Positions 434-64,000 of a DNA stretch of 64,000 nucleotides are shown piece by piece. How positions within the stretch are numbered: the stretch's first letter is position 1; each line of letters opens with the position of its first letter. This DNA comes from Cyclospora cayetanensis. Lineage: Eukaryota; Apicomplexa; Conoidasida; Eucoccidiorida; Eimeriidae. The notes beneath the pieces are model-generated. The model was not told where the DNA came from, made no database searches, and worked only from the letters and a program-made list of their open reading frames with translations. The stretch lies in the NCBI RefSeq assembly GCF_002999335.1, contig NW_020312142.1:1-64000 (forward strand). Reading direction: 5' to 3'. The translations under genes were made by a program, and so were the position numbers.

Positions 434-437
434 CTTG

Positions 438-3410: not shown

Positions 3411-3459
3411 CACGGAAACCGGGAAAAAGACGCCTTTTGGCTCGACAGGCTGTCAGCAC

Positions 3460-10120: not shown

Positions 10121-10129
10121 AGGTGCGAT

Positions 10130-11880: not shown

Positions 11881-13019
11881 GACAATGTGAGCATGCTAGA
11901 ACCACTCGATTGCCATTGGAAATGGGCATCTAAACTTCATACGCTGAAAACAAATGAGTATTGCTCCAAAAATGAGCCAGGGAACAATATCCCAGATCTA
12001 ATAAAGCACCACTCCGCTTGGCTCCTTACTAGCATATCCACTGCAATGTATAGTACAAATCTTAGTTTTCTGAGCACATGCATCGCGACAAGACGACACA
12101 TGCACAGCTGTACTCAGCAGACCCGCACATTTCAGCGGCGATCATAGACACCGACGACTCAACAACGTCCTGCCGGAGTCGCCTAAACGCACGGACGCCT
12201 GCGAGACTAATCTGGAAAACCGGGATCACCAATCTAAGGCACCCGAGATGCCAAACAACACTTACGACACACTGCCGGCTTCTGCGGACCCACATCGACA
12301 CCGCACATGCCTTGCACAGCCCACGTGCTGAATATCGCCAACCCAGACCGGCATTAGCAAATAGGCACCACCAGAGCATATAAAGCACAATCTACAAAAG
12401 AGAAACACCAAACAACTACAGATACACAAAGGTGCTCAGCTTCTCCAGAACAAGGATGCCACTCGGTCCTTCAATTGTTGCTTTCAGCTTCTGCCACTCA
12501 AACAAGTGGTTCTGAATACCCGCGCGAAACACATTTCCAGTGCAGTATTCAGCCTACTCCTCTTCCTGTGGCTGCACATAACAACAGTGATAGCCATCCC
12601 ACTGCAGCACACAAGCTAGCTGCTGGCCTCAGCCTACATGCATTAGCCACAACAAAAACCACATCCTACACCCCACACCTTTGCATGCAAAGAGCGTACG
12701 TCCTGAGTCATGCAGGGTGCAGATGTTCACCAGCCTCCATATCAATTCCGCATCAAAGCGACAGCAAATGCTAGCCGATTTGCTCGTACTAGAACTCCCT
12801 TAGTCTTATGGGCCAACGAGGAAGTAGAGTTAACTTACTGAAACAACTGACCATTTAGCCAAGCACATGCCATAAAACAAGCCTCCACATCTTCGAAGCA
12901 TCAATTCCGCTAAACCCGTTACTCACATAAACAGTTTTATTGCTGCTATTAATATTGATGCTTTGAGCACATGCAGTAGCACCCGATGACACCAACGCAG
13001 ATTAAAGCACAGGAAACGT

Positions 13020-14150
13020 ACAGCCACTGGCGTTCAGACGACCTGCCAACTCAGCATCCTCCTGCCAAACTGGCCTAAACACACGGACGCCTGCGAGCCT
13101 CCGCCAACACTCCGCAACACATGTTTAGGGAACCAGTGGTACCAAGCAACACCTACGACACATTGGCTGCTTATCCGCCCCCACACCCAAACCGCACTTG
13201 CCTTGCACAACCCACTAGCTGCACACCGCCAACGCAGACCGGCATTACCAAATGCGTGCCATCCGGGCATATTCACCACAATCTACAACAGCGAAGCATC
13301 AAAGAGCTCCAGTCACATAAAGATGCTTAGGCTCTCCTGAACAAGGATGCCGCTCGGTCATCCAATTCTCGCTTTTAACTTCTGCCACTGGAACGAGTGG
13401 TTCTAAGCACCCATGAGAAACACATTTCGAGTGCAGTGCGCAGCCTGCTCCTACCCCTGCGGCTGCACATAACAACAGTGCTAGCCATCCCACTGCAGCA
13501 CACAAGCTAGCTGCTGGCCTCAGCCTACATGCATTAGCCACAACAAAAACCACATACTACACCCCACACCGTTTCATGCAGAGAGCGCACTGCCTGAGTC
13601 ATGCAGGGTGCAGATGTTCACCAGCCTCCACATCAATTCCGCATCAAAGCGACAGCAAGTGCTAGCCGATGTGCTCGTGCTAGAACCAACCTAGTCTCAC
13701 GGCCGAGCTCGCATAGGCACTGCACGCGCTGGAAACAACTGACCACTTCTCCAAACACATGCCATAAAACAAGCCTCCACATCTTATAAAGCATCGGTTC
13801 CGCTAAACCCGTTACTCACATAAACGGTTTTAGTGCTGTTATTGATATTGATGCTTTGAGCACATGCAATAGCACCCGATGACACCAACGCACATTCAAG
13901 CCCAAAAAACGTACAGCCACTGGCGTTCAGACGACCTGCCAACTCAGCATCCTCCTGCCAAACTGGCCTAAACACACGGACGCCTGCGAGCCTCCGCCAA
14001 CACTCCGTAACACATGCCTAGGGAACCAGTGGTACCAAGCAACACCTACGACACATTGGCTGCTTATCCGCCCCCACACCCAAACCGCACTTGCCTTGCA
14101 CAACCCACTAGCTGCACACCCCAACCCAGAACGGCATTAACAAATGCGCG
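13020..14150 (+). repeat. Adjacent near-identical monomer segments
   Basis: The segment from CATCCTCCTGCCAAACTGGC to the CACAACCCACTAGCTGCAC block occurs at about 13049-13220 and again at about 13943-14116 with only a few differences. The offset is about 894 bp. Both share variants rare elsewhere, such as TGGCCTAAACACACGG and GAGCCTCCGCC. This indicates recent local copying near the otherwise diverged left edge. Confidence 0.7.
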
Positions 14151-14465
14151 CCATTAGCTCAAAGGCTCCACGCAGTGCAACAGCGAAACATCAAAGAACG
14201 TGAAAGAACTACAGCCACTCGAAGGTGCTTAGGCCCTCCTGAACATGCATGCCGCTCGGTCCTCCCATTGTTGCCTTCAGATTCGGCCACTGCAACAGAT
14301 AATATATGAGCATCCAAGTGAAACACGCTTTGAGTGCAGCCCGCAGCCTTCTCCCCGTGCGGTTGCACATAACAACAGTGCTAGCCATCACACTGCAGCA
14401 CACACGGTAGGTGCTGGCCTTAGCCTACACGCATTAGCTACAGCAAACACCACATACTACACTCC

Positions 14466-14560
14466 ACATCTGGTGACGCGAAGAGCCTATGTCCCGAAAG
14501 ATATAATACACCCGACATCTGTGGACGCAAAGAGCTACGTCCCCAGTCATGCAGCGTGCA
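14466..14560 (+). repeat. Internal duplication of about 48 bp in one monomer
   Basis: The spacing between landmarks 14413 and 15354 is 941, about 48 above the mode. The extra length lies where CACATCTGGTGACGCGAAGA is followed by a second, diverged version, GACATCTGTGGACGCAAAGA, before the AGTCATGCAG block resumes. The two versions differ at several sites, so the duplication is not recent. Confidence 0.6.
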
Positions 14561-15750
14561 TATGTTAACCAGCCTCCACGTTAATTCCGCATCAAAGGCA
14601 CAGCAAGTGATAGCCGATGTGCTCGTGCTAGAACTGCTCTAGTCTTATGGCCGTGCTCGCATAGGCATTTCATACGTTAAAAACAACTGAGTACTTCTCC
14701 ATCCACATGCCATGGAACAAGTCTCCACATCTTATAATCCATCAGTTCCGCATAGCCCCATCCTCACATAAGCGGTTCTATTGCTGCTATAGACATTGTT
14801 GCTTTGAGCACATGCAATACGACACGACGACACCAACGCACATTCAAGCCCAAAAAACGTACTGCCACTGGCCTCTATAAGACCTGCCAACTCGTCATCC
14901 TCCTGCCACACTCGCCTAAACACACGGACGCCTGCGAGTCTCCACTAACACTCCGCACCATATCTCTGAAGTACCAGTGGTACCAAGCACTACCTACAAC
15001 AGATTGGCTGCTTAACAACACACACACCCAAACCGCACCGGGCGTGCCCAACATACTAGCTGGACATCGCCAACGCAGACCGGCATTAGCAAATACGCAC
15101 CATCAGCGCAAATGCTGCATTCACGACAGCAGCGAAACATTAATGAAGTCCAGGCACTCAAAAATGCTAAGGCTCTCCTGAACAAGGATGCTGCTTGGTC
15201 CTTCAATTATCGCTTTCAGATTCGGCCAATACAATAGCTCATATATGAGCATCCAAGTGAAATACACCCCTAGTGCAGTGCGCAGCCTTTCCTCTGCGTG
15301 CCAATGCACATAACAACAGTGCTAGCCATCCCACTGCAGCACACAAGCTAGCTGCTGGCCTCAGCCTACATGCATTAGCTACAGCAAAAACCACATCCTA
15401 CACCCAACACCAATGCATGCAAAGAGCGCACTGCCTGAGTCATGCAGCGTGTAACTGTTCACCAGCCTCCATATCAATTCCGCATCAAAGCGACAGCAAG
15501 TCTTAGCAGATGTGATCGTGCTAGAAGCACCCTAGTATTGTGGCCATGCTCGCGTTGGGATTGCATACGCTGAAACAACTGATCACTTCTCCAAACACAT
15601 GCCATGAAACAAGCCTTCGAATCTTATAAAGCACCAATTCCGCTAAACACACTATTCACATAAGCGGGTGCTATTGCTGCTATTGATATTGTTGCTTTGA
15701 GCGCATGCAATACGACACGACAACACCAACGCAGACTCAAGCACAGGAAC

Positions 15751-15770
15751 CGTACTGCCGGAGTCGCCAA
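15751..15770 (+). other. Site of a 41-bp deletion between CTGCC repeats
   Basis: Normal monomers have CTGCC three times between CGTACTGCC and CATCCTCCTGCC. Here CGTACTGCC runs directly into GGAGTCGCC, so the 41 bp between the first and last CTGCC are gone. This accounts for the shortest landmark spacing in the array (855 between 15354 and 16209). Confidence 0.75.
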
Positions 15771-18700: not shown

Positions 18701-21381
18701 TAGGCCCTCCTGAACATGCATGCCGCTCGGTCCTCCAATTCTCGCTTCCAGATTCGGCAAAAACGCAACAGATAATATATGAGCATCCAAGTGAAACACA
18801 CTTTGAGTGCAGTGCGCAGCCTACTCCTCCCCGTGCGGCTGCACATAACAACAGTGCTAGCCATCCCACTGCAGCACACAAGCTAGGTGCTGGCCTCAGC
18901 CTACATGCATTAGCTACAGCAAAAACCACATACTACGCACCACACCAATGCATGCAAGGAGCGCACTTCCTGAGTCATGCAGCGTGCGAATGTTCACCAG
19001 CCTTCATATCAATCCCGCATCAAAGCGGCAGCAAGTGCTAGCCGATGTGCTCGTGCTAGAACCACTCTAGTCTTATGGCCAACCTCGCATAGGCATTCCA
19101 TACGGTGGACACGACTGACCACTTTTCCAAACACATGCCATAAAACAAGTCTCTACTTCGTATAAACGCAACATTGCCTTTTCCGCATACTCACATAAGC
19201 GGTTCTATTGCTGCTATTGACATTGTTGCTTTGAGTACATGCAATACGACACGACACTAACGTACATTCAAGCACAGGAACCGCACTGCCACTGGCGTTC
19301 AGACGACCTGCGAACGCAGCATCCTCCTGCCAAACTCGCCTAAATAAACGCACGGACGCCTGCGAGTCTCCACCAACACTCGGCACCACTTGCCTCAAGG
19401 CCAGCAGTACCAAACAACACCTACGACAGGTTAGCTGCTTATCCGCACCCACACCCAAACCGCACTTGCCTTGCACAACCCACTGCCTAAAAATTATCAA
19501 TGCAGACCGGCATTACCAAATGCCCACCATCAGCGCAAATCCTGCATTCGCGACAACAGCGAAACATCAAAGATCTACAGACACTCAAAGGTGCTTACGC
19601 TCTCCTGAACATGCATAGCGCTCGGTCCTCCAATTCTCGTTTTCAGCTTCTGAAAATACCCTAGCGACCACGTGAAACACACTTTGAGTGCAGTGCGCAG
19701 CCTACTCCTCCGCCTGCCAATGCACATAACAACAGTGCTAGCCATCCCACTGCAGCACACAAGCTAGGTGCTGGCCTCAGCCTACATGCATTAGCACAGC
19801 AAAATGCACATACTACACGCCACACCTTTGCACGCAAAGAGCGCACTGCCTGAGTCATGCAGGGTGCGACTGTTCACAAGACTCCATGTCAATTCCGCAT
19901 CGAACCGACGGCAAGTGCGAGCCGATGTGCTCGTGCTAGAACCACTCTAGTCTTGTAGTCAATATCGCATAGGCATTCCACATATTGAACGGAACTGACC
20001 ACTTTCACAAATACATGCCATAGAACCTTCATATCGTATAAAGCATCAATTCCGCAAACCAGAATACTCACATAAGCGGTTCTACTTCTGCTATTGATAT
20101 TGTTGCTTTGAGCACATGCAATACGACACGACGACACCAACGCAGATTAAAGCATAGGAAACGTACTGCCACTGGCGTACAGACGACCTGCCAACTCAGC
20201 ATCCTCCTGCCGGAGTCGCCTAAATAAACGCCCGGACTCCTGCAAGTCTCCACCAACACTCCGCACCACATGTCTAGGGGACGAGTGGTACTAAACAACA
20301 CCTACGACGCATTGGCTGCTTATCCGCCCCCACACCCAAACCGCACTTGCCTTGGACAACCCACTGCCTAAAAATTACCAATGCAGACTGGCATTAGCAC
20401 GGGCGCACCATCAATGCACATGGGCCACAATCTACAACAACGAAACATCAAAGAACTACAGACACTCGAGGATGCTTAGGCTCTCCTGAACAAGGATGCT
20501 GCTCGGTCCTCCGATTCTCGTTTCCAGCTTCTGATAATATCCTAGCCTTCAAGTGAAAAACACGTTGAGTGCACTCCGTAGCCTACTCCTCCGCGTGCCA
20601 ATGCACACAACAACAGTGCTAGCCATCCCACTGCAACACACAAGCTAGGTGCTGGCCTCAGCCTACATGCATTAGCTACAGCAAAATCCACATACTACAT
20701 CCTACACCAATGCACGCAAAGAGCGCACCGCCTGAGTCACGCAGCGTGCAAATGTTCACCATCCTGCGTATCAATCCCGCATCAAAGCGACAGCAAGTGC
20801 TAGCAGATGTGATCGTGCTAGAACCCCTCTAGTCTCATGGCCATGCTCGCATAGGCATACCATTCGCTGAAACAAGTGACCACTTTCACAAACACATGCC
20901 AGAAAACCTTCATATCGTATAAAGCACCAACTCCGCTACACCGCTTACTCATATAAGCGGTTCTATTGCTGCTATTGACATTGTTGCTTTGAGCACATGC
21001 AATACGACACGACGATACCAACGCAGATTAAAGCACAGGAAACGTACTGCCACTGGCGTTCAGACGACCTGACAACTCAGCATCCTCCTGCCAAAGTCGC
21101 CTAAACGCACGGACGCCTGCGAGTCCCCACCAACACTCCAAACCACATGTCTCGGGAACCAGTAGTACCAAGCACCGCCTACGATACATTGGCTGCTTAA
21201 CAGCACCAATATCCAAACCGCACTTGCCTTGCACAACCCACTTTCTGCACATCGCCAACGCAGACCGACATTAGCAGATGCGCAGCATCAGCGCGAAAGC
21301 TGCATTCAGCACAACAGCGAAACATCAAACAACATGAAACAACGGCATCCACTCAAAGGTGCATAGGCTCTCCTGAACATG

Positions 21382-36391: not shown

Positions 36392-36601
36392 CTTGCACAG
36401 CACACTTTCTGCACATTGCCAACACAGAGCGGCATTAGCAAAGCCGCACCATCAGCGCAAACCCTACATTGAGCACAACAGCAAAACATAAAAAAACTTG
36501 CACAGCACACTTTCTGCACATTGCCAACACAGAGCGGCATTAGCAAAGCCGCACCATCAGCGCAAACCCTACATTGAGCACAACAGCAAAACATAAAAAA
36601 A
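36392..36601 (+). repeat. Perfect 105-bp tandem duplication inside one monomer
   Basis: The segment starting CTTGCACAGCACACTTTCTG at about 36392 and running through GCAAAACATAAAAAAA is repeated exactly at an offset of 105 bp. The second copy ends at about 36601. I saw no difference between the copies. This makes the landmark spacing 998 between 35811 and 36809 (893 + 105). Exact identity implies that the duplication is much younger than the differences between monomers. Confidence 0.9.
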
Positions 36602-37057
36602 CTAAAGCCGCTCGAAAGTGCTTAGGCTCTCCTGAACATGCATGCCGCTCCATCCTCCAATTCTTGCTTTCAGATTCGGCCAACGCAATAGCTCATATAT
36701 GAGCATCCAAGTGAAATACACCCCTAGTGCAGTGTGCAGCCTACTTCACCGCGTGCCAATGCACATACGAACAGTGCTAGACATCCCACTGCAGCACACA
36801 AGCTAGGTGCTGGCCTCAGCCTACATGCATTAGCTTCAGCAAAAACCACATACTACACCGCACACCTTTGCATGCAAGGAGCGCACTTCCTGAGTCATGC
36901 AGCGTGCAAATGTTCACCAGCCTCCATATCAATTCCGCATCAAAGCGACAGCAAGTCTTAGCAGATGTGATCGTGCTAGAAGCACCCTAGTATTGTGGCC
37001 ATGCGCGCGTTGGGATTGCATACGCTGAAACAACTGATCACTTGTCCAAACACATGC

Positions 37058-43189: not shown

Positions 43190-43225
43190 TTCCGCTTCAA
43201 ACAGACAGCACGTGGTAGAACCACT
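43190..43225 (+). other. Site of a deletion of about 21 bp between GTGCTAG repeats
   Basis: Normal monomers read AAGTGCTAGCCGATGTGCTC and then GTGCTAGAACC. This copy reads GACAGCACGTGGTAGAACC, so the sequence from the first GTGCTAG up to the second is lost. This matches the short landmark spacing of 873 between 43066 and 43939. Confidence 0.7.
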
Positions 43226-46200: not shown

Positions 46201-49200
46201 CTGCGAGTCTCCACCAACACTCTGCAGCCCATGTCTAGGGAACCAGGAGCACCAAACAACACCTACGACGCAATAGTTGCTTATCCGCCCACACAAATAA
46301 ACCGCACTCGCCTTGCACGACCCACTTTCTGCACATCGCCAACGCAGAGCGGCATTAGCAAATGCGCACCATCAAAGCAAATCCTGCACTCAGTACAACA
46401 GCGAAAGATCAAAGAACTCCAGCCACTCGAAGGTGCTTAGGCTCTCCTGAGCATGCATGTTGCTCGGTCCTCCAATTCTCGCTTTCAGATTCGGCCAACC
46501 AATAGATAATATATCAGCATCCAGGTGAGACACAACGCTAGTGCAGTGCGCAGCCTGCTCCTCCTCCTGCCGCCTTACATAACAACAGTGCTAGCCATAC
46601 CACTGCAGCACACAAGCTAGGTGCTGGCCTCAGACTACATGCATTTGCTACAGCAAAAACCACATACTACACAGAACGCCTTTGCATGCAAAGAGCGCAC
46701 CTCCTGAGTCATGCAGCATGCAAATGTTAACTAGCCTCCATATCGATTCCCCATCAAGGCTACGGCAACTGCTAGCCGATGTGCGCGTGCTAGAACGACT
46801 CTGGTCTCATGGCCATGCTCGCACTGGCACTCGATGCGCTGGCAACAACTGACACTTCTCCATCCACATGCCATGGAACATCCTGTCCAATCTACAAAGC
46901 ACAAATTCATGTTAGCGTCTTATTCGCGTAATGCATTCTCTTGCCGCAATTGATATTGTTGCTTTGAGCACATGCAATACGACACGACGACACCAACGCA
47001 GATTAAAGCACAGGAACCGCACTGCCACTGGCGTCCAGACGACCTGCCAACTCAGGATCCTCCTGCCGGAATCCCTGAACGCACTGATGCCTGCGAGTCT
47101 CTACCAACACTCCGAACTACATATATAAAGGACCAGTAGTACCAAACAACACCTACGACACATTGGCTGCTTATCCCCCCACACATCCGCACCGCAACTG
47201 GCTTGCACAACCCACTTCCTAGAGATTTCCAACACAGAACGGCATGAGCAAATGCGCACCATCAGCGCAAACGCTGCATTCAGTACAACAGCGAAACATC
47301 AAAGAACTTCAGAAACTCGAAGGTGCATAGGCGCTCCTGAACATGCATGCCGCTCGGTCATCAAATTCTCGCTTTCAGATTCGGCCAACGCAATAGATCA
47401 TATATGAGCATCCAGGTGAAACACACTTTGAGTGCAGTGCGCAGCCTGCTCCTCCCCCTGCAGCCACACATAACAACAGTGTTAGACATCCCACTGCAAC
47501 ACACAAGCTAGATGCTGGCCTCAGCCTACATGCATTAGCTAAAGCAAAAACTACACACTACACAGAACACCTTTGCATGCAAAGAGCGCACTTGCTGAGT
47601 CATGCAGCGTGCAAATGTTCACCAGCCTCCACATCGATTCCGCATCAAAGCTACATCAAGCGCTAGCCGATGTGCTCGTGCTATGACCACACTAGTCTTC
47701 TGGCAATTGTCGCATAGGCACTCCATACGCTGCTAACAATTGACCACTTGTCCATACACATGCCATGGAATAAGCCGCTACATCTGAAGAAGCATCGATT
47801 CGGTTGTACCCCATAGTAACATACGTGGCTCTATTGCTTCCTCTGATATTGTTGCTTTGAGCACATGCAATAGGACACGACGAGATCAATGCAGATTGAA
47901 GAACAGGAACAGTACTGCTGCTGGCGTTCAGACAAATTGCCAAATCATCGTTGTCGGGCCAGCGCCACCCAAATGCACGACGCCTGCGAGTCTCCACCAA
48001 CACTCCGCACCACATGTCTAAGGGACCAGTGACACCATGCGACACCTACGACACATTGGCTGCTTATCACCACCCACACCCAAACCGCACCTGGCTTGCA
48101 CAACCCACTTCCTGCATATCGCCAAGCGGACCGGCATGAGCAAATGCGCACCATCAACGTAAACGCGGCATTCAGTACAACAGCGAAACATCAAAGAAAT
48201 ACAGCCACTCAAAGATGGATACGCTCTCCTGATCAAGGATGCTGCTCAGTCCTCCAATTCTCGCTTTCAGATTCGGCCAACGCAACAGATAATATATGAG
48301 CATCCACGCGAAACACACTTCCAATACAGTGCGCAGCCTGCTCCTCCCCGTAAGCCTGCACATAACAACAGTGCTAGTCATACGACTGCAGCACACAAGC
48401 TAGGTGCTGGCCTCAGCCTATATGCATTAGCTACAGCAAAATCCACATACTACACCCCACACCTTTGTATGCAAGGAGCGCACTGCCTGAGTCATGCAGG
48501 GTGCAAATGTCCACTAGCCTCCATATCAATTCTACAACAAAGCGACAGCAAGTGCTAGTCGATGTGCTCGTGCTAGAACCACTCTAGTCTTATGGCCATG
48601 CTCGCATAGGCATTCCATACGCTAGAAACAGCTGACCACTTCTCTAAAACACCTGCTATGGAACAGGCATACACATTTTTAAAGCATCAATTCAGCATGG
48701 CCCTACACTCACATAACCCATTCTTTTGCTGCTACTGATATTGGTGCTTTGAGCACATGCAATACTACACGACAAAACTAAAGCAGACTAAAGCACAGCA
48801 ACCGTACTGCCACTGGGGTCCAGACGACCTGCGAACGCAGCATCCTCCTGCCACTGTCCCCTAAACGCACACACGCCTGCGAGTCTCCACCAACACTCCG
48901 AACCACATGTCTAGTGGACCAATAGTACCAAACAACATCTACGACACATTGGCTGCATATCCGCCCACAGACCCATTCCGCACTTGCCTTGCACAACCCA
49001 CTAGCTGGAAATTGCCAACGCAGAGCGGCATTCGCAAATGCGCACCATCAGCGCAAATCCTGCATTCAGTGCAACAACGAAACATGAAGCAACTACAGCC
49101 ACTCAAAGGTGCATAGGCTCTCCTGAACAAGGATGCCGCTCGGTCCTCCAATTCTCGCTTTCAGATTCGGCCAACGCAATAGATCAGATATGAGCATCCA

Positions 49201-52200
49201 GCTGAAAGACACCCCTAGTGCAATGCTCAGCCTCCTTCTCCCCTTGCGGCCATACATAACAACAGTGCTAGCCGTCCCACTGCAGCACACAAGCTAGGTG
49301 CTGGCCTCAGCCTACATGCATTAGCTACAGCAAAAGCACATACTACACAGAACACCTTTGCATGCAAGGAGCGCACTGCCTGATTCATTCAGCATGCAAG
49401 GGTTTGCCAGCTTTTCATATCAATTTTTTATCAAAGCGACACCATGTGCTAGCCGATGTGCTCGTGCTAGAACCACTCTAGTCTTCTGGCCAAGCTTGCA
49501 TAGGCATTCCATACGCTAGAAACAACTGATCACTTCTCCATACGCATGCCATGGAACAAGCCTCCACATTTTACAATGCGCCGATTCGTAATAGCCCCAT
49601 ATTCACATAAGGGATTATATTGCTGGGATTGATATTGTTGCTTTGAATACATGCAATACGACACGACGAAACCAACACAGATTAAAGCACAGCAACCGTA
49701 CTGCCACCGGTGTCCCGACGACCTGCCAACTCAGGATCCTCCTGCCACTGTCCCCTAAATAAACGCACGGACGCCTGCGAGTCTCCAGCAACATTCCCGA
49801 CCACATGTCTAGGGGACCAGTAGTACCAAACAACATCTACGACACATTGGCTGCTTATTCGCCCACACAAACAAATCACACGTGGTTTGCACAACGCACT
49901 TCCTGCACACCGCCATGCAGACCGGCATGAGCAAATGCGCACCATCAGCGCAAATCCTGCATTCAGTACAACAGCGAAACATAAAAAAGCTAAAGCCACT
50001 CGAAGGTGCACAGGCTCTTCTGAACAAGGATGCCGCCAAGTCCTCCGATTCTCGCTTTCAGATTCGGCCAACGCAATAGGTAATATATCAGTATCCAAGT
50101 GAAACACACTTTGACTGCGGTATGCAGCCTACTTCTCCCCCTGCGGCCACACATAACAACAGTGCTAGCCATCCCACTGCAACACACAAGCTAAGTGCTG
50201 GCCTCAGCCTACATGCATTAGCTACAGGAAAAGCACATACTACACCCCACACCTTTGCATGCAAGGAGCGCACTGCCTGAGTCATGCAGGGTGCAAATGT
50301 TCACCAGCCTTCATATCAGCTCCTCATCAAGGCGACGGAAAGTGCTAGCAGATGTGCTCGTGCTAGAACCACTCTAGTCTTATGGCCATGCTCGCATAGG
50401 CATTCCATATGCTAGAAACAACTGACCACCTCTCCAAAACACATGCCATGGAACAAGCCTCCACATCTTGTAGAGCACCAACTCGACATAGCCCCATACT
50501 CACATAGCCGGTTATATTGCTGCTATTGATATTGTTGCTTTGTTCACATGCAATACAACACGACTGCACCAACCCAGATTCAAGCACAGGAGCCGTACTG
50601 CCACTGGCGTCCAGAGTACCTGCCAACTCAGCATCTTCCTGCCGGAGTCCCCTAAACGCACGGACGCCGGCGAGTCTCTATCAACACTTTGCAGCACGTG
50701 CCTTAAAAATAGTAGTACCAAACAACACCTACGAAACATTGGCTGCTTATAAGCACCCACACACCGAAACCGGTATTGCCTTGCACAACCCACTTCCTGA
50801 AAATGACCAACGCTGACCGGTATTAGCAAATGCGTACCATCAGCGCAAACCGTGCATTCAGTACAACAGGAAAAGCGAAGAGAACTACAGCCACGCGAAA
50901 GTGCTTAGGCTCTCCTGAACACGGATGCCGCTCAGTCCTCCAATTCTCGCTTTTAACTTCGGCCACTGCAATACATAATATATGAGCACGCAAGTTAAAT
51001 ACACTTCGAATGCAGTGCGCAGCCTGCTCCTCCGCGTGCCAATGCATATAACAACAGTGCTAGCCATCCTACTGCAGCACACAAGCTAGGTGCTGGCCTC
51101 AGCCTACATGCACTAGCTACAGCAAAATGCACATACTACACAGAATACCTTTGTATGCAAAGCGCGCACTTCCTAAGTCATGCAACATAAATGTGTTCAC
51201 CAGCCTCGATATCGATTCCGCATCAAGGCGACGGCAAGTGCTAGCAGATGTGCTGGTGCTAGAACCACTCTAGTCTCATGGCCAAGTCGCATAGGCATTC
51301 CATATGCTAGGAACAACTGATCACTTCTCCAGACACATGCCATGGAACAAACCAGCACATCGTATAAAGCACCAATTGGGCATAGCCCCATACACACATA
51401 GCGGATTGTACTGCTGCTATTGACATTGTTGCTTTGTTCACATGCAATACGACACGACGACACCAGCGCAGACTAAAGCAGAGGAACCGTACTGCCACTG
51501 GCGTCCAGAGCACCTGCCAACTCAGCATCCTCCTGCGACTGTCCCCTAAACGCACGGACGCCTGCGAGTCTCCACCAACACTCTGCACCACATGTCTAGG
51601 GGACCAGTAGTACCAAACGACACCTACGACACATTGGCTGCTTATAAGCACCCACACACATTCGGCACTTGCCTAGCACAACCCACTAGCTAGATATTCC
51701 CAAAACAGAACTCATATTAGCAAAAACACGCCATAAGCGCAAATCCTGCATTCAGGACAACAACGAAACACGAAAGAAATCCAGCCACTCGAAGGCGCAT
51801 AGGCTCTCCTGAACAAGAATGCCGCTCGGTCCTCCAATTCACGCTTTCAGATTCGGCAAACACAATAGATAATATATGAGCATCCAAGTAAAACACTTTA
51901 AGTGCAGTGGGCAGCCTCCTCCTCCCCCTTAGGCCACACATAACAACAGTGCTAGCCATCCCACTGCAGCACACAAGCTAGGCGCTGGCCTCAGCCTACA
52001 TGCATTAGCTACAGCAAAACCACATACTACACCCAACACCTTTGCGTGCAAGGAGCGCACTGCCTGAGTCATGCAGGATGCAAATCTTCACCAGCCTCCA
52101 TATCAATTCTACACCAAAGCGACAGCAAGTGCTAGCAGATGTGCTCGTGCTAGAACCACTCTAGTCTCATGGCCATGCTCACATAGGCATTCCATGCGCC

Positions 52201-52327
52201 AAAAACAGCTGATCACTTCTCTGTCCACATGCCATGGAACAAGCCTCAACATCTTTTAAAGCATGAAGTCGGCATAGTCCCATACTCACATAGCCGGTTC
52301 TATTGCTGCTATTGATATTGTTGCTTT

Positions 52328-53220
52328 GAGCACATGCAATGCTACACGACGACACCAACGCGCATTAAAGCACAGCAACCCTACTGCCACTGGGGTCCAG
52401 ACGACCTGCCAACTCAGCATCCTCCTCCCACTGTCCCCTAAACGCACGGACGCCTGCGAGTCTCTACCAACACTCTGCACCCCATGTCTAGGGGAGCGGT
52501 TGTACCAAACAACACCTACGACACATTGGCTGCTTATTCCCCCCCACACCCATTCCGCACTTGCCTTGGACAACCCACTTCCTTCACATCACCAAACCAG
52601 ACTGGCATTAGCAAATACGCACCATCAGCGCAAAGGCTGCATTCAGGACAACAGCGAAGCATGAAAGAATTACAGCCGCTTGAAGGTGCTTAGGCTCTTC
52701 TGAACATGCATGCCGCTCGGTCCTCCAATTGTCGCTTTCAGATTCGGCCAACGCAGTAGATAAGACCTGCGCATATACGTGAAACACACGTTCAGTGCAG
52801 TGCTCAGCCAACTTCTCCACCTGCGGTTGCACATAACAGCAGTGCTAGCCATACGACTGCAGCACACAAGCTAGGTGCTGGCCTAAGCCTACATGCATTA
52901 GCTACAACAAAAACACATACAACACAGAACATCTTTGCATGCAAAGACCGCACTGCCTGAGTCATGCAGCGTGCAAATGTCCACCAGCCTCTATATCAAC
53001 TCCGCATCAAGGCGACAGCAAGTGCTAGCAGATGTGCTCGTGCTAGCACCACTCTAGTCTCATGGCAATGCTCGCATAGGCATTCCATACGCTGGAAACA
53101 ACTGACCACTTCTCTATCCACATGCCATGGAACAAGGCTCCACATCTTATAGAGCACCAATTGGGCATAGCCCCATACTTAAATAAGCGGTTCGATTGCT
53201 GCTATTGATATTGTTGCTTT
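52328..53220 (+). repeat. Representative 893-bp monomer
   Basis: This copy is delimited from GAGCACATGCAATG to the base before the next GAGAACATGC and is exactly 893 bp. Landmarks in order: the block following GAGCACATG; CATCCTCC; CCCCTAAACGCACGG; ACACCTACGACACATTGGC; CTTGGACAACCCACT; AGCGCAAAGGCTGCATTC; CTTAGGCTCTTCTGAACATG; GCTCGGTCCTCCAATT; GCACACAAGCTAGGTGCTGG; TACATGCATTAGCTACA; TTTGCATGCAAA; CTGCCTGAGTCATGCAGC; GTGCTAGCAGATGTGCTCG; CTCGCATAGGCATTCCATAC; a variable stretch after CATGCCATGGAACA; and TTGCTGCTATTGATATTG. Across the array the segments around GAGCACATGCAATAC, GCACACAAGCTAGGTGCTGG and CTGAGTCATGCAG are the most constant. The stretch between CATGCCATGG and TTGCTGCTATTG is the most variable. 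Confidence 0.9.
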
Positions 53221-56200
53221 GAGAACATGCGATACTACACGATGACACCAACGCAGATTAAAGCACAGCAACCGCACTGCCACTGGCGTTCAGACAAACT
53301 GCCAACTCAGCATCCTCCTGCCACTGTCCCCTAAACGCACGAACGCCTGCGAGTCTCCACCAACACTCTTAACCACATGCCTGAAGAAACCCTAGCACCA
53401 AACAACACTTGCAACACATTGGCTGCTAATAAGCACCCACACGTATTCCGCACTTGCCTTGCACGACCCACTTTCTGCACATCGCCAACGCAGACCGCCA
53501 TTAACAAATCTGCACCATCAGCGCAAACCCTACATTCAGTACAACAGCGAAACATAAAAAAGCCAAAGCCACTCGAAGGCGCTTAGGCTCTCCTGAACAT
53601 GCATGCCACTCGGTCCTCCAATTCTCGCTTTTAACTTCGGCCAACGCAACAGAAAATATAGGAGCATCCAAGTGAAACACACTTTGAGTGCAGTGCGCAG
53701 CCTGCTCCTACCCCTCAGGCCACTCGTAACAACAGTGCTAGCCATCCCACTGCAGCAAACAAGCTAGGCGCTGGCCTCAGCCTACATGCATTAGCTACAA
53801 CAAAAACCACATACTACATCCCACACCTTTGCATGCAAGGGGCGCACTTCCTGAGTCATTCAGCGTGCAAATGTTTGCCAGCTTCCATATCAATTCCGCA
53901 TCAAAGCGACGGCAAATGCTAGCATACGTGCTGGTGCTAGAACCACCCTAGGCTTGTGGCCGTGCTCGCATAGGCATTCAATACCCTATGAGCAATAAAC
54001 GACTTCTCCATCCACATGCCATGGAACCAGCCTCCACGTCTTACAACGCACCAATTCGGCTATACGCCATACTCACATGAGCGGTTCTATTGCTGCTATT
54101 GATATTGTTGCTTTGAGCACATCCAATACGACACGACGACACCAACGCAGATTAATGCACAGCAACCGTACTGCCACTGGCGTCCAGATAAACTGCCAAC
54201 ACAGCATCTTCCTGCCAAAGTCCCATAAACGCACGGACGCTTGCGAGTCTCTACCAACATTCCTGAGCACATGACTAAAGATCCCCTGGTACCAAACAAC
54301 ACCTGCGACACATTACCTGCTAATAAGCACCCACACGTATTCCGCACTTGCCTTGCACGACCCACTTTCTGCACATCGGCAACGCAGACCGGCATTAGCT
54401 AATGCACATTATCAGTGTAAATGCTGCATTCAGTACAACGACGAAACGTGAAAGAACTCGGCCAACTTGAAGGCGCTCAGAGACTCCTGAAGAAGCATGC
54501 CGCTCGGTCCTCCAATTCTCGCTTTCAACATCGGCCAACGCAATAGATCAAATATCAGCATCCAAGTGAAACAAGCTTCCAGCGCAGTGCGCAGCCTACT
54601 ACTCCTCCTGCGGCCACACATAACAACAGTGCTAGCCATCCTACTGCAGCACACAAGCTAGGTGCTGGCCTCAGCCTACATGCATTAGCAACAGCAAAAA
54701 CCACATACTACACAGAACACCTTTGCATGCAAAGACCGCACTGCCTGAGTCATGCAGGGTGCAAATGTTTGGCAGCTTCCATATCAATTCCCCATCGAAC
54801 CGAAAGCAAGCGCTAGCAGATGTGCTCGTGCTAGAACCACTCTTATCTCATGGGCGTGCTCGCATAGGCATTCCATATCCTAGAAACAACTGACCACTTC
54901 TCCAAACACATGCCATGAAACCAGGCTCCACATCTTATAATGCACCAACGCGGTTCTACCCGATACTCACATAGGCGGTTCTATTGCTGCTATTGACACT
55001 GTTCCTTTGAGAACATTCAATACGACACGACAACACCAACGCAGATTAAAGCACAGCAACCGTACTGTCACAGGCGTCCAGATAAACTGGCAACTCAGCA
55101 TCATCCTGCGGGAGTACCCTAGACGCACGGACGTCTGCGAGTCTTCACCAACACTCTAAACCACATGTCTAGGGGACCAGTGGTACCAAAAAACACCTGC
55201 AACACATTGGCTGCTTATCCGCCTCCAAACCCATTCCGCACTTGCCTTGCACAACCCACTTCCTGCACATCGCCAACGCAGACCGGCATTAGCATATGTG
55301 CACCATCAGCGAAAAGGCTGCATTCACTAAAACAGCAAAGCATCTAAGGACTACAGCCACTTGAAGGTGCCTAGGCTCTCCTGAACAAGGATGCCGCTCG
55401 GTCCCCCAATTCTCGCTTTTAGATTCGGCCAATTCAACAGATAATATATAAGCATCCAAGTGAAACACACTTCCAGTGCAGTGCTCAGCCTGCCCATCCA
55501 CCTGCGGCTGCACATTACAACAGTGCTAGCCATACCACTGCAGCACACAAGCTAGGTGCTGGCCTCAGCCTACATGCATTAGCTACAACAAAAGCACATA
55601 CTACGCCCCACACCTTTGCATGAAAAGAGCGCACTTCCTGAGTCATGCAGCGTTCAAATGTTCACCAGCCTCTATATCAATTCCGCATCAAAGCGACAGC
55701 AAGTGCTAGCAGATGTGCTGGTGCTAGAACCAATCTAGTCTCATGGCCATGCTCGCATACGCATTCCATATGCTGGGAACAACTGACCTTTTCTCCAAAC
55801 GCATGACATTCAATAAGCCTCCACATCTTATAGAGCACCAATTCGGCTATACGCCATACTCACATAGGCGGTTCTATTGCTGCTATTGATATTGTTGCTT
55901 TGAGAACACGCAATACTACACGACGACACCAACGCACATTGAAGCACAGGAACCGTACTGCCACTGGCGCTCAGACGACCTGCCAACTCAGCATCCTCCC
56001 GCCAAAGTCCCCTAAACGCACGGACGTCTGCGAGTCTCCACCAACACTGCTAACCACATGCCTAGGGGACCAGTAGTACCAAACGACACCTACGACACAT
56101 TGGCTGCTTAAAAGCACCCACAACCATTCCGCAGTTCCCTTGAACAACCCACTAGCTGGAAATTGCCAGCACACACAGGCATTAGCATGTGTCCACCATT

Positions 56201-59200
56201 AGCGCAAAGGCTGCATTCAGTATAACAGCGAAACATGAAAGAATTCTAGCCACTTGAAGGTGCCTAGTCTGTTCTGAACATGGATGCTACTCGGGCCTCC
56301 AATACTCGCTTTCAGATTCGCCAAACACAATAGATAATACATGAGCATCCAAGTGAAACACACTTCCAGTGCAGTGCTCAGCCTGCTCCTACCCCTGCGG
56401 CTGCACATAACAACAGTGCTAGCCATTCCACTGCAGCACACAAGCTAGGTGCTGGCCTCAGCCTACATGCATTAGCAACAGCAAAAACCACACACTACAC
56501 CCCACACCTCTGCATACAAACAGCGCACTGCCTGAGTCATGCAGGGTACAAATGTTTGCAGGCCTCCATATCAATTCCCCATCAAGGCGACAGCAAGTGC
56601 TAGCAGATGTAGTCGTGCTAGAACCACTCTAGTCTTATGGCCATGCTCGCATAGGCATTCCATACGCTAGAAACAACTGACCACTTCTCCACTTAATTAA
56701 CAAGGCACAAGCCTCCACGTCTTATGCTGCATCAATTCGGCTATACGTCATACTCACATAGGCGGTTCTATTGCTGGTGTTGATATTGTTGCTTTGAGAA
56801 CATGCAATACTACACGACGACACCAACGTAGATTAAAGCACAGCAACCGTACTGCCACTGGGGTCCAGATGACCTGCCAACCCAGCATCCTCCTCCCACT
56901 GTCTCCTAAACGCACGGACGCCTGCCAGTCTCCACCAACATCCCTAACCACATGACTAAAGATCCCCTGGTACCAAACAACACCTACGACACATTGGCTG
57001 CTTATCCGCCTCCACACCCATTCCGCACTTGCCTTGCACAACCCACTTCCTGCACATCAAAAACGCACACCGGCATTAGCAAATGATTACCATCAGCGCA
57101 AAGGCTGCATTCAGTACAACAGTGATACATCAAAGAACAACAGCCACCTGAAGGTGCATAGGCGCTCCTGAACATGCATGCCGCTCGGTCCTCCAATTCT
57201 CGCTTTCAGATTCGGCAAACGCAATGGATAATATATGACCATCCAAGTAAAACACACTTTGAGTGCAGTGCGCAGCCTACTACTCCCCCTTAGGCTACAC
57301 ATAACAACAGTGCTAGCCATTCCACTGCAGTACACAAGCTAGGTGCTGGCCTCAGCCTACATGCATTAGCTACAACAAAAACCACATACTACCCAGAACA
57401 CCCTTGCACGCAAAGAGCGCACTGCCTGAGTCATGCAGGGTGCAAATGTATGCAGGCCTCCATATCAATTCCTCATAAAGGCGACAGCAAGTGCTAGCAG
57501 ACGTCCTCGTGCTAGAACCACTCTAGTCTCATGGCCATGCTCGCATAGGCATTCCAGCCGCAAGAAGCAACTGACCACTTCTCTAAAACCTATGTCATGG
57601 AACAAGCCTTCACATCGTATAAAGCACTAATTCCGCTGAAACCTCCACTCACATAAGTGGTTCTATTGCTGCTATTGATATTGTTGCTTTGAGAACATGC
57701 AATACTACACGACGCCACCAACGCAGATTAAAGCACAGCAAACGTACTGCCACTGGCGTCCAGAGCACCTGCCAACTCAGCATCCTCCTGCCGGAGGCCT
57801 TAAGCGCTTCAACGTCTGCGAGTCTCCACCAACACTGCTAACCACATGTCTAGGGGACCACTGGTACCAAACGACACCTACGACATATTGGCTGCTTCTA
57901 GGCACCCACACCGAAACCGCTATTGCCTTGCACAACCCACTGCCTGAAAATCGCCAACGCAGACGGCTAGTACCAAGGGTGCGCTATCGGCGCAAAGGTC
58001 GCATTCAGTACAACAGCGAAATCTTAAAGAATCACTGCATCTCCAAGGTGCTTACGCGCTCCTGAGCATGCATGCCTCTGGTCCTCCAATTCTCGCTTTC
58101 ACATTCGGCAAACGCATTATACAATATATGAGCATCCAAGTGAAACACACTCCCAGTGGAGTGCTCAGCCTGCTCCTACCCTTGCGGCTACACATAACAA
58201 CAGTGCTAGCCATCCCACTGCAGCACACAAGCTAGGTGCTGGCCTCAGCCTACATGCATTAGCTACAACAAAAACCACAAACTACACAGAACACCTTTGC
58301 ATGCAAAGAGCGCACTTCCTGAGTCATGCAGCGTGCAAACATTCACCAGCCTCCATACCAATTTCGCATCAAGGTGACAGCAAGTGCTAGCAGATGTGCT
58401 GGTGCTAGAACCAATCTAGTCTTATGGCCATGCTCGCATAGGCATTCCATACGCTGGAAACAACTGACCACTTCTCTATCCACACGCCATGGAACAAACC
58501 GGCAAGTCTTACAAAGCACCACCTCGGCTTTACGTCATACTCACATAGCCGGTTCTATTGCTGCTATTGACATTGTTGCTTTGAGCACATGCAATACGAC
58601 ACGACGACACCAACGCAGATTAAAGCACAGCAACCGTACTGCCACTGGCGGCCAGATAAACTGGCAACTGAGCATCTTCCTACCGGAGTCCCCTAAACTC
58701 TCGGACCTCTGCGAGTCTCCACCAACACTCCTAACCACATATCTAGGAGACCAGTTGTACCAAACGACACCTACGACACATTGGCTGCTTATAAGCACAC
58801 ACACACACAAACCGCACTTGCCTTGCACAACCCACTAGCTGGTCATCGCAAACGCAGACGGCATTTGCTAACGCGCACCATCAGCGCAAATCCTGCATTC
58901 AGTACAACAGAGAAAGCTCAAACAATTCCAGCCACTCGAAGGTGCTTATGCCCTCCTCAGCATGCATGCCGCTCGGTCCTCCAATTCTCGCTTTTAGATT
59001 CGGCAAACGCAATAGAAAAAAAATATGGACATCCAAGTGAAACACACTTCCAGTGCAGTGCGTAGCCTACTACTCCCCCTGCGGCTGCACATAACAACAG
59101 TGCTAGCCATCCCACTGCAGTACACAAGCTAGGTGCTGGCCTCAGCCTACATGCATTAGCTACAGCAAAATCCACATACTACAGCCCACACCTTTGCATG

Positions 59201-61290
59201 CAAGGAGCGCACTGCCTGAGTCGTGCAACGTGCAAATGTTTGCAGGCGTCCATATCAATTCCGCATCAAGGCGACAGCAAGCGCTAGCAGATGTGCTCGT
59301 GCTAGAACCACTCTAGTCTCTATGGCGAAGCTCCCATAGGCATTCCATACGCTGGAAACAACTGACCACCTCTCCAAACGCGTTGCATGGAGCAAGCCTT
59401 TACATATTATAAAGCACCGATTCAGCTTTACCTCATACTCACATAAACTATAGTATTGGTGCTGTTGATATTGTTGCTTTGAGAACATGCAATACGACAC
59501 GACGACACCAACGCAGATTAAAGCACAGGAACCGTACTGCCACTGGCGTCCAGAGCACATGCCAACTCAGCATCGTCCTGCCGGTGTCCCCTAAACGCAC
59601 GGACGCCTGCGAGTCTCCACCACCCCTCCAACCCACATGTCTAAAGAACCCGTTTGTACCAAACAACACCTGCAACACATTAGCTGTTTATCCGTCCCCA
59701 CACCCATTCCGTGCTTGGCTTGCACAACCCACTGCCTGTAAATCGCCAACGCAGACCGGCATTAGCAAACGCGCACCATCAGTGCAAATGTTGCATGCTG
59801 TAAAACAGCGAAACATGAAAAGAATTACAGCCATTCGAAAATGCTTAGGCCCTCCTGAACATGCATGCCGCTCGGTCCTCCAATTCATGCTTTCAGATTC
59901 GGCAAACGCAATACACAATATATGAGCACCCAAGTAAAATATATTTCGCGTGCGGTGCGCAGCCTGCTCCTACACCTTCGGCTGCATATAACAACAATGC
60001 TAGCCATCCCACTGAAGCACACAAGCTAGGTGCTGGCCTCAGCCTACATGCATTAGCTACAGCAAAAGCACATACTACACAGAACACCTTGGAATGCAAA
60101 GAGCGCACTTCCTGAGTCATTCAGCGTGCAAATGTTTGCCAGCCTCCATATCAATTTCCCATCAAGGCGCGAGCAAGTGCTTGCAGATGTGCTCGTGCTA
60201 GAACCACCCTAGTCTTATGGCCATGCTTGCACATGCATTCCATATGCTGGAAACAACTGACCACTTCTCCATCCACATGCTATAGAACAATCCTCCACGT
60301 CTTACAAAGCATCAGTTCGGCTTTATGTCATACTCACATAGGCGGTTCTATTGCTGCTATTGATATTGTTGCTTTGAGCACATGCAATACTACACGACGC
60401 CACCAACGCAGATTAATGCACAGCAACCGTACTGCCACTGGCGTCCAGACAAACTGCCACCTCAGCATCGTCCTGCCGGACTCCCCTAAACGCTCCAACG
60501 TCTGCGAGTCTCCACCAACGCTCCTAACCACATGTCTAGAGATCCCCTGGTACCAAACAACACCTACGACGCATTGGCTGCTTGTCCGTCCCCACACCCA
60601 TTCCGTACTTGCCTGGCACAACCCACTGCCTGAAAATCGCCAACGCAGACCGGCATTAGCAAATGATTACCATCAGCGCAAATGTTGCATTCAGTACTGC
60701 AGCGAAACATGAAAGAACTAGATCCACTCGAAGTTGAATAGGCTCTCCTCAACATGCATGCCGCTCGGTCCTCCAATTCTCGCTTTCAGATTCGGCAAAC
60801 GCAATAGAACATATATGAGCATCCAAGTGAAACACACTTCCAGTGCAGTGCTCAGCCTGCTCCTACCCCTGCAGCTGCACATAACAACAGTGCTAGCCAT
60901 CCCACTGCAGTACACAAGCTAGGTGCTGGCCTCAGCCTACATGCATTAGCTACAGCAAAAACCACATACTACCCAGAACACCTTTGCATGCAAACAGCGC
61001 ACTGCCTGAGTCATGCAGCGTGCAAATGTTCACCATCCTCCATATCGATTTCGCATCAAGGTGACAGCAAGTGCTAGCAGATGTGCTTGTGCTAGAACCA
61101 CTCTAGTCTTATGGCCATGCTCGCATAAGCATTCCATATGCTGGAGACCACTGACGACTTCTCCAAATACATGCCATAGAACAGTCCTCCACGTCTTACA
61201 AAGCACCATTTCGGCTTTACGTCACACTCATATAGCCGGTCCTATTGCTGCTATTGATATTGTTGCTTTGAGAACATGCAATACTACACG
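53200..61290 (+). repeat. GAGAACA-variant subfamily near the right side of the window
   Basis: The nearly invariant GAGCACATGC reads GAGAACA at about 53221, 55010, 55910, 56797, 57692, 59480 and 61270, with the standard form between some of them. I saw this C-to-A variant nowhere to the left of 53 kb. It marks a subfamily still being mixed with the standard form. Confidence 0.75.
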
Positions 61291-64000
61291 ACGACACCAA
61301 CGCAGATTAAAGCACAGAAACCGTACTGCCACTGGCGTCCAGACGACCTGCCACCTCAGCATACTCCTCCCACTGTCCCCTAAACGCACGGACGCCTGTG
61401 AGTCTCCACCAACACTCCTAACCACATGACTAAAGAACCAGTGCTACCAAGTAACACCTACAACACATTGGCTGCTTATCTGCCTGCACACCCATTCCGC
61501 ACTTGCCTTGGACAACCCACTTCCTTCACATCAACAAACCAGACCGGCATTAGCAAACACGCACCATCAGCGCAAAGGCTGCATTCAGTATAACAGCGAA
61601 ACATCAAAGAACAAACGGCATGCAAAGATGCTTCACATCAAGTAAACAAGGATGGCGTTCACTCCTTCAGTTGTCGATTTCAGATTCGGCAGTGCAATAG
61701 CTCTCAAAAAGCGTCCAAGTAAAACGCACTTTCAGTGCAATGCGCAGCCTGCTCCTACCCCTCAGGCCGCACATAACAACAGTGCTCCCATCCCACTGCA
61801 GCAAACAAGCTAGGTGCTGGCCTAAGCCTACATGCATTAGCTACAACAAAATGCACATACTACACCCCACACCTTTGCGTGCAAAGAGCGCACTGCCTGA
61901 GTCATGCAGCGTGCGAATGTTTGCAAGCCTCCATATCAATTCTGCATCAAGGCAACGGCAAGTGCTAGCCGATGTGCTGGTGCTAGAACCACTCTAGTCC
62001 TATGGGCATGCTCGCATAGGCATTCCATGCGCTGGAAACAACTGACCTTTCCTCCATCCACATGCCATGGAGCATGCCTTTGCATGTTATAGAGCACCAA
62101 TTCGTCTTTACGTTATACTCACATAAACGGCTCTATTGCTGCTATTGATATTGTTGTTTTGAGCACATGCAATACGACACGACGACACCAACGCAGATTA
62201 AAGCACAGCAACCGTACTGCCACTGGCGTCCAGACGACCTGCCAACTCAGCATCGTCCTGCCGGAGTCCCCAAACGCTCGGACGCCTGCGAGTGTCCACC
62301 AACACTGCTAGCCACATGTCAAAAGGACCGGTGGTACCAAATAATACCTACGACGCAGTGGCTCCTTATCCGTCCCCACACCCATTCCGCACTTGCCTTG
62401 CACAACCCACTAGCTGCACATCGCCAACGCAGACCGTCGTTGTCAAATGTGCACCATTAGCGCAAACGCTCCATTCAGTACAACAGCGAAACATCGAAGA
62501 ATGCCAGCCACTCGAATATGCATAGGCGATTCTGAACATGCACGCCGCTCGGTCCTCCAATTCTCGCTTTCAACATAGCCCAACGCAATAGACAATATAT
62601 GAGCATCCAAGTGAAACACACTTCTAGTGCAGTGCGCAGCCTACTACTCCCCCTGCGGCTGCACATAACAACAGTGCTAGCCATGCCAATGCAGCACACA
62701 AGCTAGGTGCTGGCCTCAGCCTACATGCATTAGCTACAGCAAAATACACATACTACACCCCACAGCTCTGCGTGCAAAGAGCGCACTTCCTGACTCATGT
62801 AACGGGTAAAGGTTCGCTAGCCACCATATCAATTCTGCATCAAAGCGGCAGCAAGTGCTAGCATATGTGCCCGTGCTAGCACCACTCTAGTCTCTATGGC
62901 GAAGCTCGCATAGGCATTCTATGCGCTGGAAACAACTGATGACTTCTCCGTCCACATGCCATGGAACAAGCCGCCACATCGTATAAAGCACCAATTCCGC
63001 TGAAACCTCCACTCACATAAGTGGTTCTAGTGCTGTTATTGATATTGTTGCTTTGAGCACATGCGTTACTACACGACAACACCAACGCAGATTGAAGCAC
63101 AGGAACCGTACTGCCACTGGCATCCAGACAAACTGCCAACATAGCATCCCCGTGCCGCCCTAAACGGTCGGATGCCTGCAAGTCTCCACCAACACTCCTC
63201 ACAACATGTCTAGAGATCCCCTGGTACCAAACAACACCTACGACACATTGGCTGCATATCCGCCTGCACACCCAAACCGCACTTGCCCTGCACAACCCAC
63301 TAGCTGAAAATCGCCAACGCAGACCGGCATTGGCAGATAAGAACCATCAGCGCAAACGCACCATTCACTACAACAGCGGAACATCAAAGAACTGCAGACA
63401 CTCGAAGATGCTCAGACTCTCCTGAACATCCATGCCGCTCGGTCCTCCAATTCTCGCTTTCACATTCGGCAAACGCAATAGATAAGATCTGCGGATATAC
63501 GTGAAACACACGTTCAGTGTAGTGGGCAGCCTGCTCCTCCACCTTCGGCTACACATTGCAACAGTGCTACCCATCCCACTGCAGCACACAAGCTAGGTGC
63601 TGGCCTCAGCCTACATGCATTAGCTACAACAAAATGCACAGCCTACACCCCACACCTTTGCGTGCAAAGAGCGCACTGCCTGAGTCATGCAGCGTGCAAA
63701 TGTTCACCAGCCTCCCTATCAATTTCGCATCAAGGCGACAGCAAGTGCTAGCAGATGCGCTCGTGCTAGGACCACTCTAGTCTTATGGACATGCTTCCAT
63801 GGGCATTCCATACGCTCGAAACAACTAACCATTTCTCCATCCACATGCCATGGAACAAGCCTTTACATGTTATAGAGCACCAGTTCGGCTTTACGTCATA
63901 CTCACATTAGTGATTCTATTGCTGCTATTGACATTGATGCTTTGAGCACATACAATACTACACGACGACACCAACGCAGATTAAAGCACAGGAACCGTAC

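What the first reader, a model, noticed from the sequence alone, without database searches (positions are those of the whole stretch)
11881..64000. A 52-kb uninterrupted satellite with an unusually long monomer (about 893 bp)
The 58 landmark copies run in one orientation with modal spacing 893 and no inserted mobile element. Most abundant satellites have much shorter monomers (roughly 100-400 bp). The unit matches no rDNA, histone, snRNA or other repeated gene that I recognise, so this may be an undescribed satellite and a candidate centromeric, subtelomeric or heterochromatic block.
Basis: partly seen in the sequence, partly recalled or inferred. Interest (0 to 1): 0.75.

Follow-up and report, generated by a model that had tools for sequence, protein, structure and literature searches.

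The report
Cyclospora chromosome-end satellite, 893-bp repeat
The window holds a long run of an 893-letter non-coding repeat that sits near chromosome ends in the human intestinal parasite Cyclospora cayetanensis; it looks like a newly seen example of a known kind of chromosome-end DNA, useful as a map feature and perhaps as a many-copy marker.

Summary
In detail: a single-orientation array of an 893-bp unit fills window 12157-64000 and runs to the end of its 71,179-bp contig. The 43.2-Mb genome is Cyclospora cayetanensis (an ARP4 exon is 100% identical to two C. cayetanensis records). The array is subtelomeric. Contig C211 links a TTTAGGG telomere, 20.5 kb of non-coding sequence and the same satellite; C19 does so in mirror image, with array edges 58.7 kb apart (interior not fully read). 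The window's first 12.2 kb is collinear with C211 (86.5%), placing it about 8.5 kb from a telomere. A landmark of the unit occurs 598 times; copies were seen on 11 contigs. Units average 81% identity in this array, show no known coding or RNA family, and group almost perfectly by contig, which points to exchange within each end and decay at the edges. The array strand is strongly C/A-rich. The closest analogue is Toxoplasma sat350/TgTARE1 (subtelomeric, highly variable units); sequence kinship was not shown. I found no description of Cyclospora telomeres or satellites in the papers searched. Heterochromatin function is inferred. Centromere, gene array and assembly artefact are disfavoured but not all excluded.

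The parts
1..10500 (+). Distal (telomere-side) subtelomeric flank, nearly unskewed; collinear with C211 from base 8530, so window base 1 lies about 8.5 kb from a telomere by homology
   Evidence: BLAST 86.5% over 12,277 columns, window 1-12200 with C211:8530-20756; GC skew -0.02; 3 ORFs of 121-127 aa, none with a Pfam match
10515..10777 (+). Decayed satellite fragment (monomer positions about 65-331)
   Evidence: E 1.2e-9, E 6.8e-11; matching fragment in C211 at 19068-19387
11116..11146 (+). 31-base landmark of the array's distal boundary, found on 13 contigs
   Evidence: up to 3 mismatches, reversed-pattern control 0
11819..12140 (+). Decayed boundary fragment (monomer positions about 551-877); same piece at C211:20376-20684 and C19:115853-116173
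12157..64000 (+). 893-bp satellite array, single orientation, telomere side to its left; continues to contig base 71179
13944..14889 (+). Irregular unit: two partial monomers (2-545 and 502-893)
36392..36603 (+). Exact 105-bp tandem duplication inside one unit
   Evidence: 2.0 copies, 100% match

Best explanation
This is a telomere-associated satellite of Cyclospora cayetanensis. Several chromosome ends carry a module of fixed geometry: TTTAGGG telomere, about 20.5 kb of non-coding sequence, a long head-to-tail array of the 893-bp satellite (edges 58.7 kb apart on C19), then a skewed proximal flank with broken satellite copies. Shown: linkage to telomeres on two contigs, polarity, shared boundary, high copy number, no recognised gene, and grouping of monomers by contig. 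Inferred: the array is copied and trimmed by unequal exchange and short-tract conversion mostly within its own end, while edges that drop out of exchange decay. Also inferred: as in Toxoplasma it is packaged as silent chromatin and serves as a gene-free buffer between the telomere and the genes.
For: Telomere in cis: C211 begins with CCCTAAA repeats (perfect tract 110-214) and its array starts at 20720. C19 has telomere repeats from 136393 to its end at 136518 and array edges at 57149 and 115824, in mirror image. The window's flank is collinear with C211. Landmarks near the telomere and at the array boundary are 18.31-18.42 kb apart on 4 of 4 contigs that carry both (arithmetic; telomere repeats themselves were seen on C19, C211 and C234). 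A 26-base landmark of the unit occurs 598 times, reversed control 0. An exact 35-mer lies at 48 places on 10 contigs; the 7 contigs with two or more places each have one orientation. On a tree of 86 monomers from three contigs the contig label changes 3 times (minimum 2) against a mean of 20.9 and minimum of 17 in 300 shuffles. Neighbouring units have 28 of 6,875 identical runs of 60 bases or more, 0.13 expected under even divergence (uneven conservation would raise that expectation). The edge unit is the most diverged of 64 (0.811 to consensus), and a young cluster at 65.8-71.2 kb reaches 0.92-0.94.
Against: No chromatin, RNA or read-depth data were available, so silencing and true copy number are untested. 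Only C211 and C19 link telomere and array, and the middle of the C19 array (62,001-107,500) was not read, only landmark places in it. The 13 contigs with the boundary landmark need not be 13 different ends; some could be variants of one end. Not every end has the module: C38 has another sequence next to its telomere in the 1.5 kb read. An Argonaute (Piwi) search found nothing, so the small-RNA route proposed for Toxoplasma satellites may not apply. Conservation along the unit is uneven beyond chance (0 of 5,000 permutations), which simple neutral turnover does not predict.
Confidence: 0.85

Rival explanations
1. It is a centromeric satellite.
For: Long arrays can mark centromeres; the Toxoplasma 529-bp satellite is called centromeric in PMC9498087 (passage).
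Against: Telomeres lie about 20.5 kb away on C211 and C19. The distal boundary landmark occurs on 13 contigs, and the four that also carry the telomere-adjacent landmark keep a constant spacing. Eimeria tenella centromeres are described as single regions averaging 35 kb at acrocentric and sub-metacentric positions (PMC8515493, passages). One published primer sequence of the 529-bp satellite has no match in the window.
Confidence: 0.04
2. It is a multicopy gene array (protein or structured RNA).
For: 19 ORFs of 120 aa or more lie in the array part of the window, 14 of them on the + strand. Stops are fewer than composition predicts in all six frames (3.2-3.3 against 3.95 per 100 codons on +, 4.1-4.3 against 4.99 on -).
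Against: The deficit is similar in all frames and so not frame-specific; the longest stretch of the unit with stops in under 10% of 64 units is 77 codons (not tested against shuffles). No Pfam match over cut-off in 10 ORFs given (best E 0.024). No Rfam or tRNA match.
Confidence: 0.04
3. The array is an assembly artefact (false expansion or collapse).
For: Arrays run to contig ends on C107, C211 and C349; one pair of units in C211 is 99% identical; read depth could not be examined.
Against: Units in C107 differ by 19% on average and no pair exceeds 94.1% identity, so this array is not one unit copied by the assembler; the same boundary piece recurs on three contigs with diverged sequence.
Confidence: 0.05
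4. Neutral satellite at chromosome ends with no cellular role (compatible with the subtelomeric identity; it denies function).
For: No recognised gene; edges decay; the core of the one perfect 14-bp palindrome (TGCATGCA) is intact in only 42 of 64 units, rank 109 of 887 8-mers, and is altered in C19 units read.
Against: Constant geometry and polarity at several ends; blocks such as CTACATGC intact in 58 of 64 units against a median of 29 of 64.
Confidence: 0.4

Closest known systems
Toxoplasma gondii sat350/Sat680 family (TgTARE1) in TgTAS-like subtelomeres
   Same: Coccidian; tandem; at or near chromosome ends with TTTAGGG telomeres; a shared orientation toward the telomere with an exception; a conserved module (about 70% similar) near the ends of 9 of 14 chromosomes; gene-poor surroundings; highly variable units (PMC4008256 abstract and sections 6 and 9; PMC9498087 abstract, passages and Discussion)
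   Different: Unit about 350/680 bp against 893 bp; TgTARE1 is the telomere-side block of a roughly 30-kb region, while this array starts about 20.5 kb from the telomere; two sat350 primer sequences printed in PMC2877743 have no match in the window
[quoted passage not shown] gondii (Genome Decomposition Analysis)
   Same: Gene-poor chromosome ends; the T. gondii ones have high GC skew and complex repeats (PMC9131526 section 8)
   Different: That paper found no particular repeat family enriched there; here one satellite dominates
Plasmodium falciparum rep20/TARE subtelomeric repeats (recalled, not tested)
   Same: Long repeat arrays between telomere and genes (recalled)
   Different: rep20 unit is about 21 bp and neighbours antigen gene families (recalled); no gene family was seen in the stretches read here

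Membership tests
Subtelomeric (telomere-associated) satellite | Tandem repeat without recognised gene | tested here: met
Subtelomeric (telomere-associated) satellite | Physically linked to telomere repeats | tested here: met
   C211 and C19 in cis; window by flank homology
Subtelomeric (telomere-associated) satellite | Present at several chromosome ends, polar | tested here: met
   13 boundary places on 13 contigs; one orientation on 7 of 7 contigs with two or more places; opposite contig ends mirror each other (C19, C211)
Subtelomeric (telomere-associated) satellite | Heterochromatic | not testable with these tools
   needs ChIP-seq
T. gondii sat350/TgTARE1 family | Unit of about 350 or 680 bp | tested here: not met
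   period 893; one unit examined holds only an 18-nt direct repeat pair and a 14-nt inverted pair
T. gondii sat350/TgTARE1 family | Sequence similarity to sat350 | tested here: inconclusive
   two published primer sequences absent with up to 3 mismatches; the full sat350 sequence was not at hand
T. gondii sat350/TgTARE1 family | Highly variable monomers | tested here: met
   mean pairwise identity 81% over 64 units
Centromeric satellite | CenH3 occupancy | not testable with these tools
   position argues against it
Multicopy RNA or protein gene array | Conserved frame or known RNA or protein family | tested here: not met
   (10 of 22 ORFs given to Pfam)

The most novel reading that the evidence does not exclude
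The satellite is a functional, sequence-read part of the Cyclospora chromosome end: a strand-asymmetric platform of some 66 units at fixed distance from the telomere, bound through its best-conserved blocks by a chromatin protein and silenced without Argonaute, with each chromosome end keeping its own satellite dialect because exchange between ends is rare inside the array.
Probability: 0.15. Interest if true: 0.65.

Novelty: new member of a known kind. Interest (0 to 1): 0.4.

Why it matters
It gives a sequence map of chromosome ends in Cyclospora cayetanensis, which I did not find in print, and suggests that the coccidian pattern (telomere, non-coding spacer, variable satellite) extends to this genus with a different satellite. 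Arithmetic (598 x 893 bp) gives about 0.53 Mb, 1.2% of the assembly, as a lower bound. A nuclear target in hundreds of copies could help to detect this foodborne parasite, where tests now use multicopy rDNA (PMC8779055, passages). The main limits are about 19% divergence between units and unknown variation between isolates.

Tried and rejected
Species identification first failed: actin was too conserved, and a surface-antigen exon gave 25 matches at 36-46% identity, 23 of them named and all of those Eimeria. An ARP4 exon settled it. A first idea that the genome was an Eimeria was dropped for that reason. It also fitted poorly: of the 9 contigs listed with four telomere repeats in a row, 7 have them within 400 bases of a known contig end and the other two (C141, C189) have lengths I did not see, whereas E. 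falciformis has such heptamers dispersed (PMC4287421, passages). Only about half of the 204 matches were listed.

An idea that each unit carries a selected ApiAP2-type palindrome (motif recalled) was not supported: TGCATGCA is enriched in the array (0.76 per kb against 0 and 0.05 in two flanks) but ranks only 109 of 887 8-mers for intactness and is changed in C19 units read. An idea that ongoing mutation maintains the skew was not supported: differences away from C outnumber those to C (1,995 against 1,192). These are cells, not events, counted from a majority consensus in which C is the commonest base, so this is weak. The small-RNA silencing idea lost support when no Piwi domain was found; the search is exon by exon and the only control that rang was an archaeon, so a split gene could be missed.

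A search for starts of telomere tracts gave only 4 places and was not used to count ends. A 48-base flank landmark was found on only 4 contigs and missed C19, so single landmarks undercount ends. A whole-unit DNA search of the genome scored only one of 65 candidates and missed the window's own contig, so it was not used for counts. Papers also looked at in passages without use for the main argument: PMC10739835 and PMC9141347.

Full report
What is there. TRF with long periods gives one array at 12157-64000, period 893, 58.0 copies. A monomer profile finds 62 matches in the window, all + strand, 56 of them full, covering about 51,717 of 51,843 bases; one shuffled array gives none. The array runs on to the end of the contig, C107, at 71,179 and holds 64 full units there.

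Which organism. The window lies in a 43.2-Mb assembly of 392 contigs. An ARP4 exon from contig C71 is 100% identical over 99% of 300 residues to two Cyclospora cayetanensis proteins; the best named match from another genus is Eimeria mitis at 74%. The genome paper of C. cayetanensis gives 44.03 Mb (PMC4851813, passages), which fits.

Where it sits. Contig C211 begins with CCCTAAA repeats (perfect tract 110-214) and carries the same satellite from 20720 to its end. Contig C19 ends with TTTAGGG repeats from 136393 to 136518 and has array edges at 57149 and 115824 on the opposite strand, so the polarity to the telomere is the same. I read C19 at 48001-62000 and 107501-117000 and saw only landmark places between. 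The window's first 12.2 kb is collinear with C211:8530-20756 at 86.5%. A decayed piece with the same monomer coordinates (about 551-876) sits just outside the array on all three contigs. A 31-base boundary landmark occurs at 13 places on 13 contigs, and a 30-base landmark next to the telomere at 6 places. On the four contigs with both (C19, C211, C234, C240) the two are 18.31-18.42 kb apart; C9 and C349 carry only the second. The 13 contigs need not be 13 different ends.

How much. A 26-base landmark of the unit occurs 598 times in the assembly with up to 3 mismatches, none for the reversed control (about 100 places listed, on 6 contigs). It finds 63 sites in C107, where there are 64 full units plus partial ones, and 10 in C211, but only 2 in the stretch with five full units at the proximal edge of C19, so 598 is a lower bound. 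A rarer exact 35-mer lies at 48 places on 10 contigs, all listed, and the 7 contigs with two or more places each have one orientation. Together the two lists name 11 contigs.

How it evolves. Units of C107 average 81% pairwise identity, declining slowly with distance (0.8345 at one unit, 0.806 at 24). Between contigs the averages are lower: C107-C211 0.787, C107-C19 0.767 and 0.779 for the two C19 stretches. On a tree of 86 units the contig labels change 3 times, against 17 or more in 300 shuffles. Exchange is therefore mostly within an end. Neighbouring units have long identical runs (28 of 6,875 are 60 bases or longer, 0.13 expected under even divergence). The outermost unit is the most diverged and a young cluster lies near the contig end. 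This is what unequal crossing-over and conversion give, with decay where exchange stops.

Strand asymmetry. The array has GC skew -0.258 and AT skew +0.176 on the strand running away from the telomere. The distal flanks are near zero (C107 -0.02, C211 -0.047), while the proximal flanks read on C19 and C349 keep about -0.18 and +0.1. The two proximal flanks are collinear at 69% over 4.6 kb. C19 shows an old repeat about 4.65 kb apart, to both copies of which C349 aligns, and both carry broken satellite pieces (reversed controls 0). Recognised pieces cover only 1,208 of 9,110 and 723 of 6,520 bases there, against 528 of 12,140 and 551 of 20,450 in the distal flanks. I infer that the proximal flank is partly old satellite and that its skew is inherited. 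Differences away from C outnumber those to C, which fits erosion but is weak, since C is the commonest base.

Not a recognised gene. No tRNA or Rfam family is found, and no Pfam match over cut-off in 10 of the 22 ORFs of 120 aa or more (one sub-threshold match at E 0.024). Stops occur in all six frames; they are somewhat rarer than composition predicts in every frame. The longest stretch of the unit with stops in under 10% of 64 units is 77 codons, not tested against shuffles.

What it works like. The closest described case is the Toxoplasma sat350/TgTARE1 family: at chromosome ends, mostly oriented, gene-poor, with highly variable units and silent-chromatin marks (PMC4008256 abstract and sections 6 and 9; PMC9498087 abstract, passages and Discussion; PMC2877743 passages). 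The unit length differs, and two published sat350 primer sequences are absent, so I do not file it in that family. Silent packaging here is inferred by analogy. One link is weak: no Piwi domain was found, so the satellite-RNA route suggested for Toxoplasma may not exist.

Novelty. A search for papers holding both 'Cyclospora cayetanensis' and 'telomer' gave 10, none about Cyclospora chromosome ends by title and start of abstract. Of the papers listed (8 of 8; 25 of 3,227; 20 of 14,694), none is about it by title. The genome paper's main text has no occurrence of 'telomer' or 'satellite'. A survey of transposable elements covered C. cayetanensis with de novo repeat models (PMC9141347, passages); I did not see whether this satellite was among them. 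I could not search Dfam, RepBase or subscription papers. It is a new member of a known kind.

Noticed in passing
C349:193467-194123 (L055): A copy of telomere-adjacent sequence lies inside contig C349, about 25 kb on the centromere side of that contig's satellite array, in the same polarity; homology to C211 stops about 470 bp short of where the telomere tract would be, and no TTTAGGG is present in the 1.6 kb read. It looks like an older, buried chromosome end.
   Followed up: partly
C19:48001-57100 and C349:212001-218520 (L052, L048, L053): Proximal flanks of the array are collinear between two contigs (69% over 4.6 kb); C19 shows a very old repeat about 4.65 kb apart, and both carry broken satellite pieces.
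   Followed up: partly
C107:12158-71179 (window and L009) against window:1-12157: The array differs from its flank in substitution pattern: transition/transversion 0.79-1.16 in several comparisons against 1.54 in the flank, and adjacent differences 1.51 times expectation against 1.16. Unexplained; mosaic exchange between old units is one possibility.
   Followed up: partly
C38 start (L046, 1.5 kb): This telomere-bearing contig has a different sequence next to its telomere from C9, C19 and C211, so not all chromosome ends share the module.
   Followed up: no
whole assembly G000: No Piwi/Argonaute domain was found in this C. cayetanensis assembly, whereas Toxoplasma has an Argonaute (PMC2877743, passages).
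   Followed up: no
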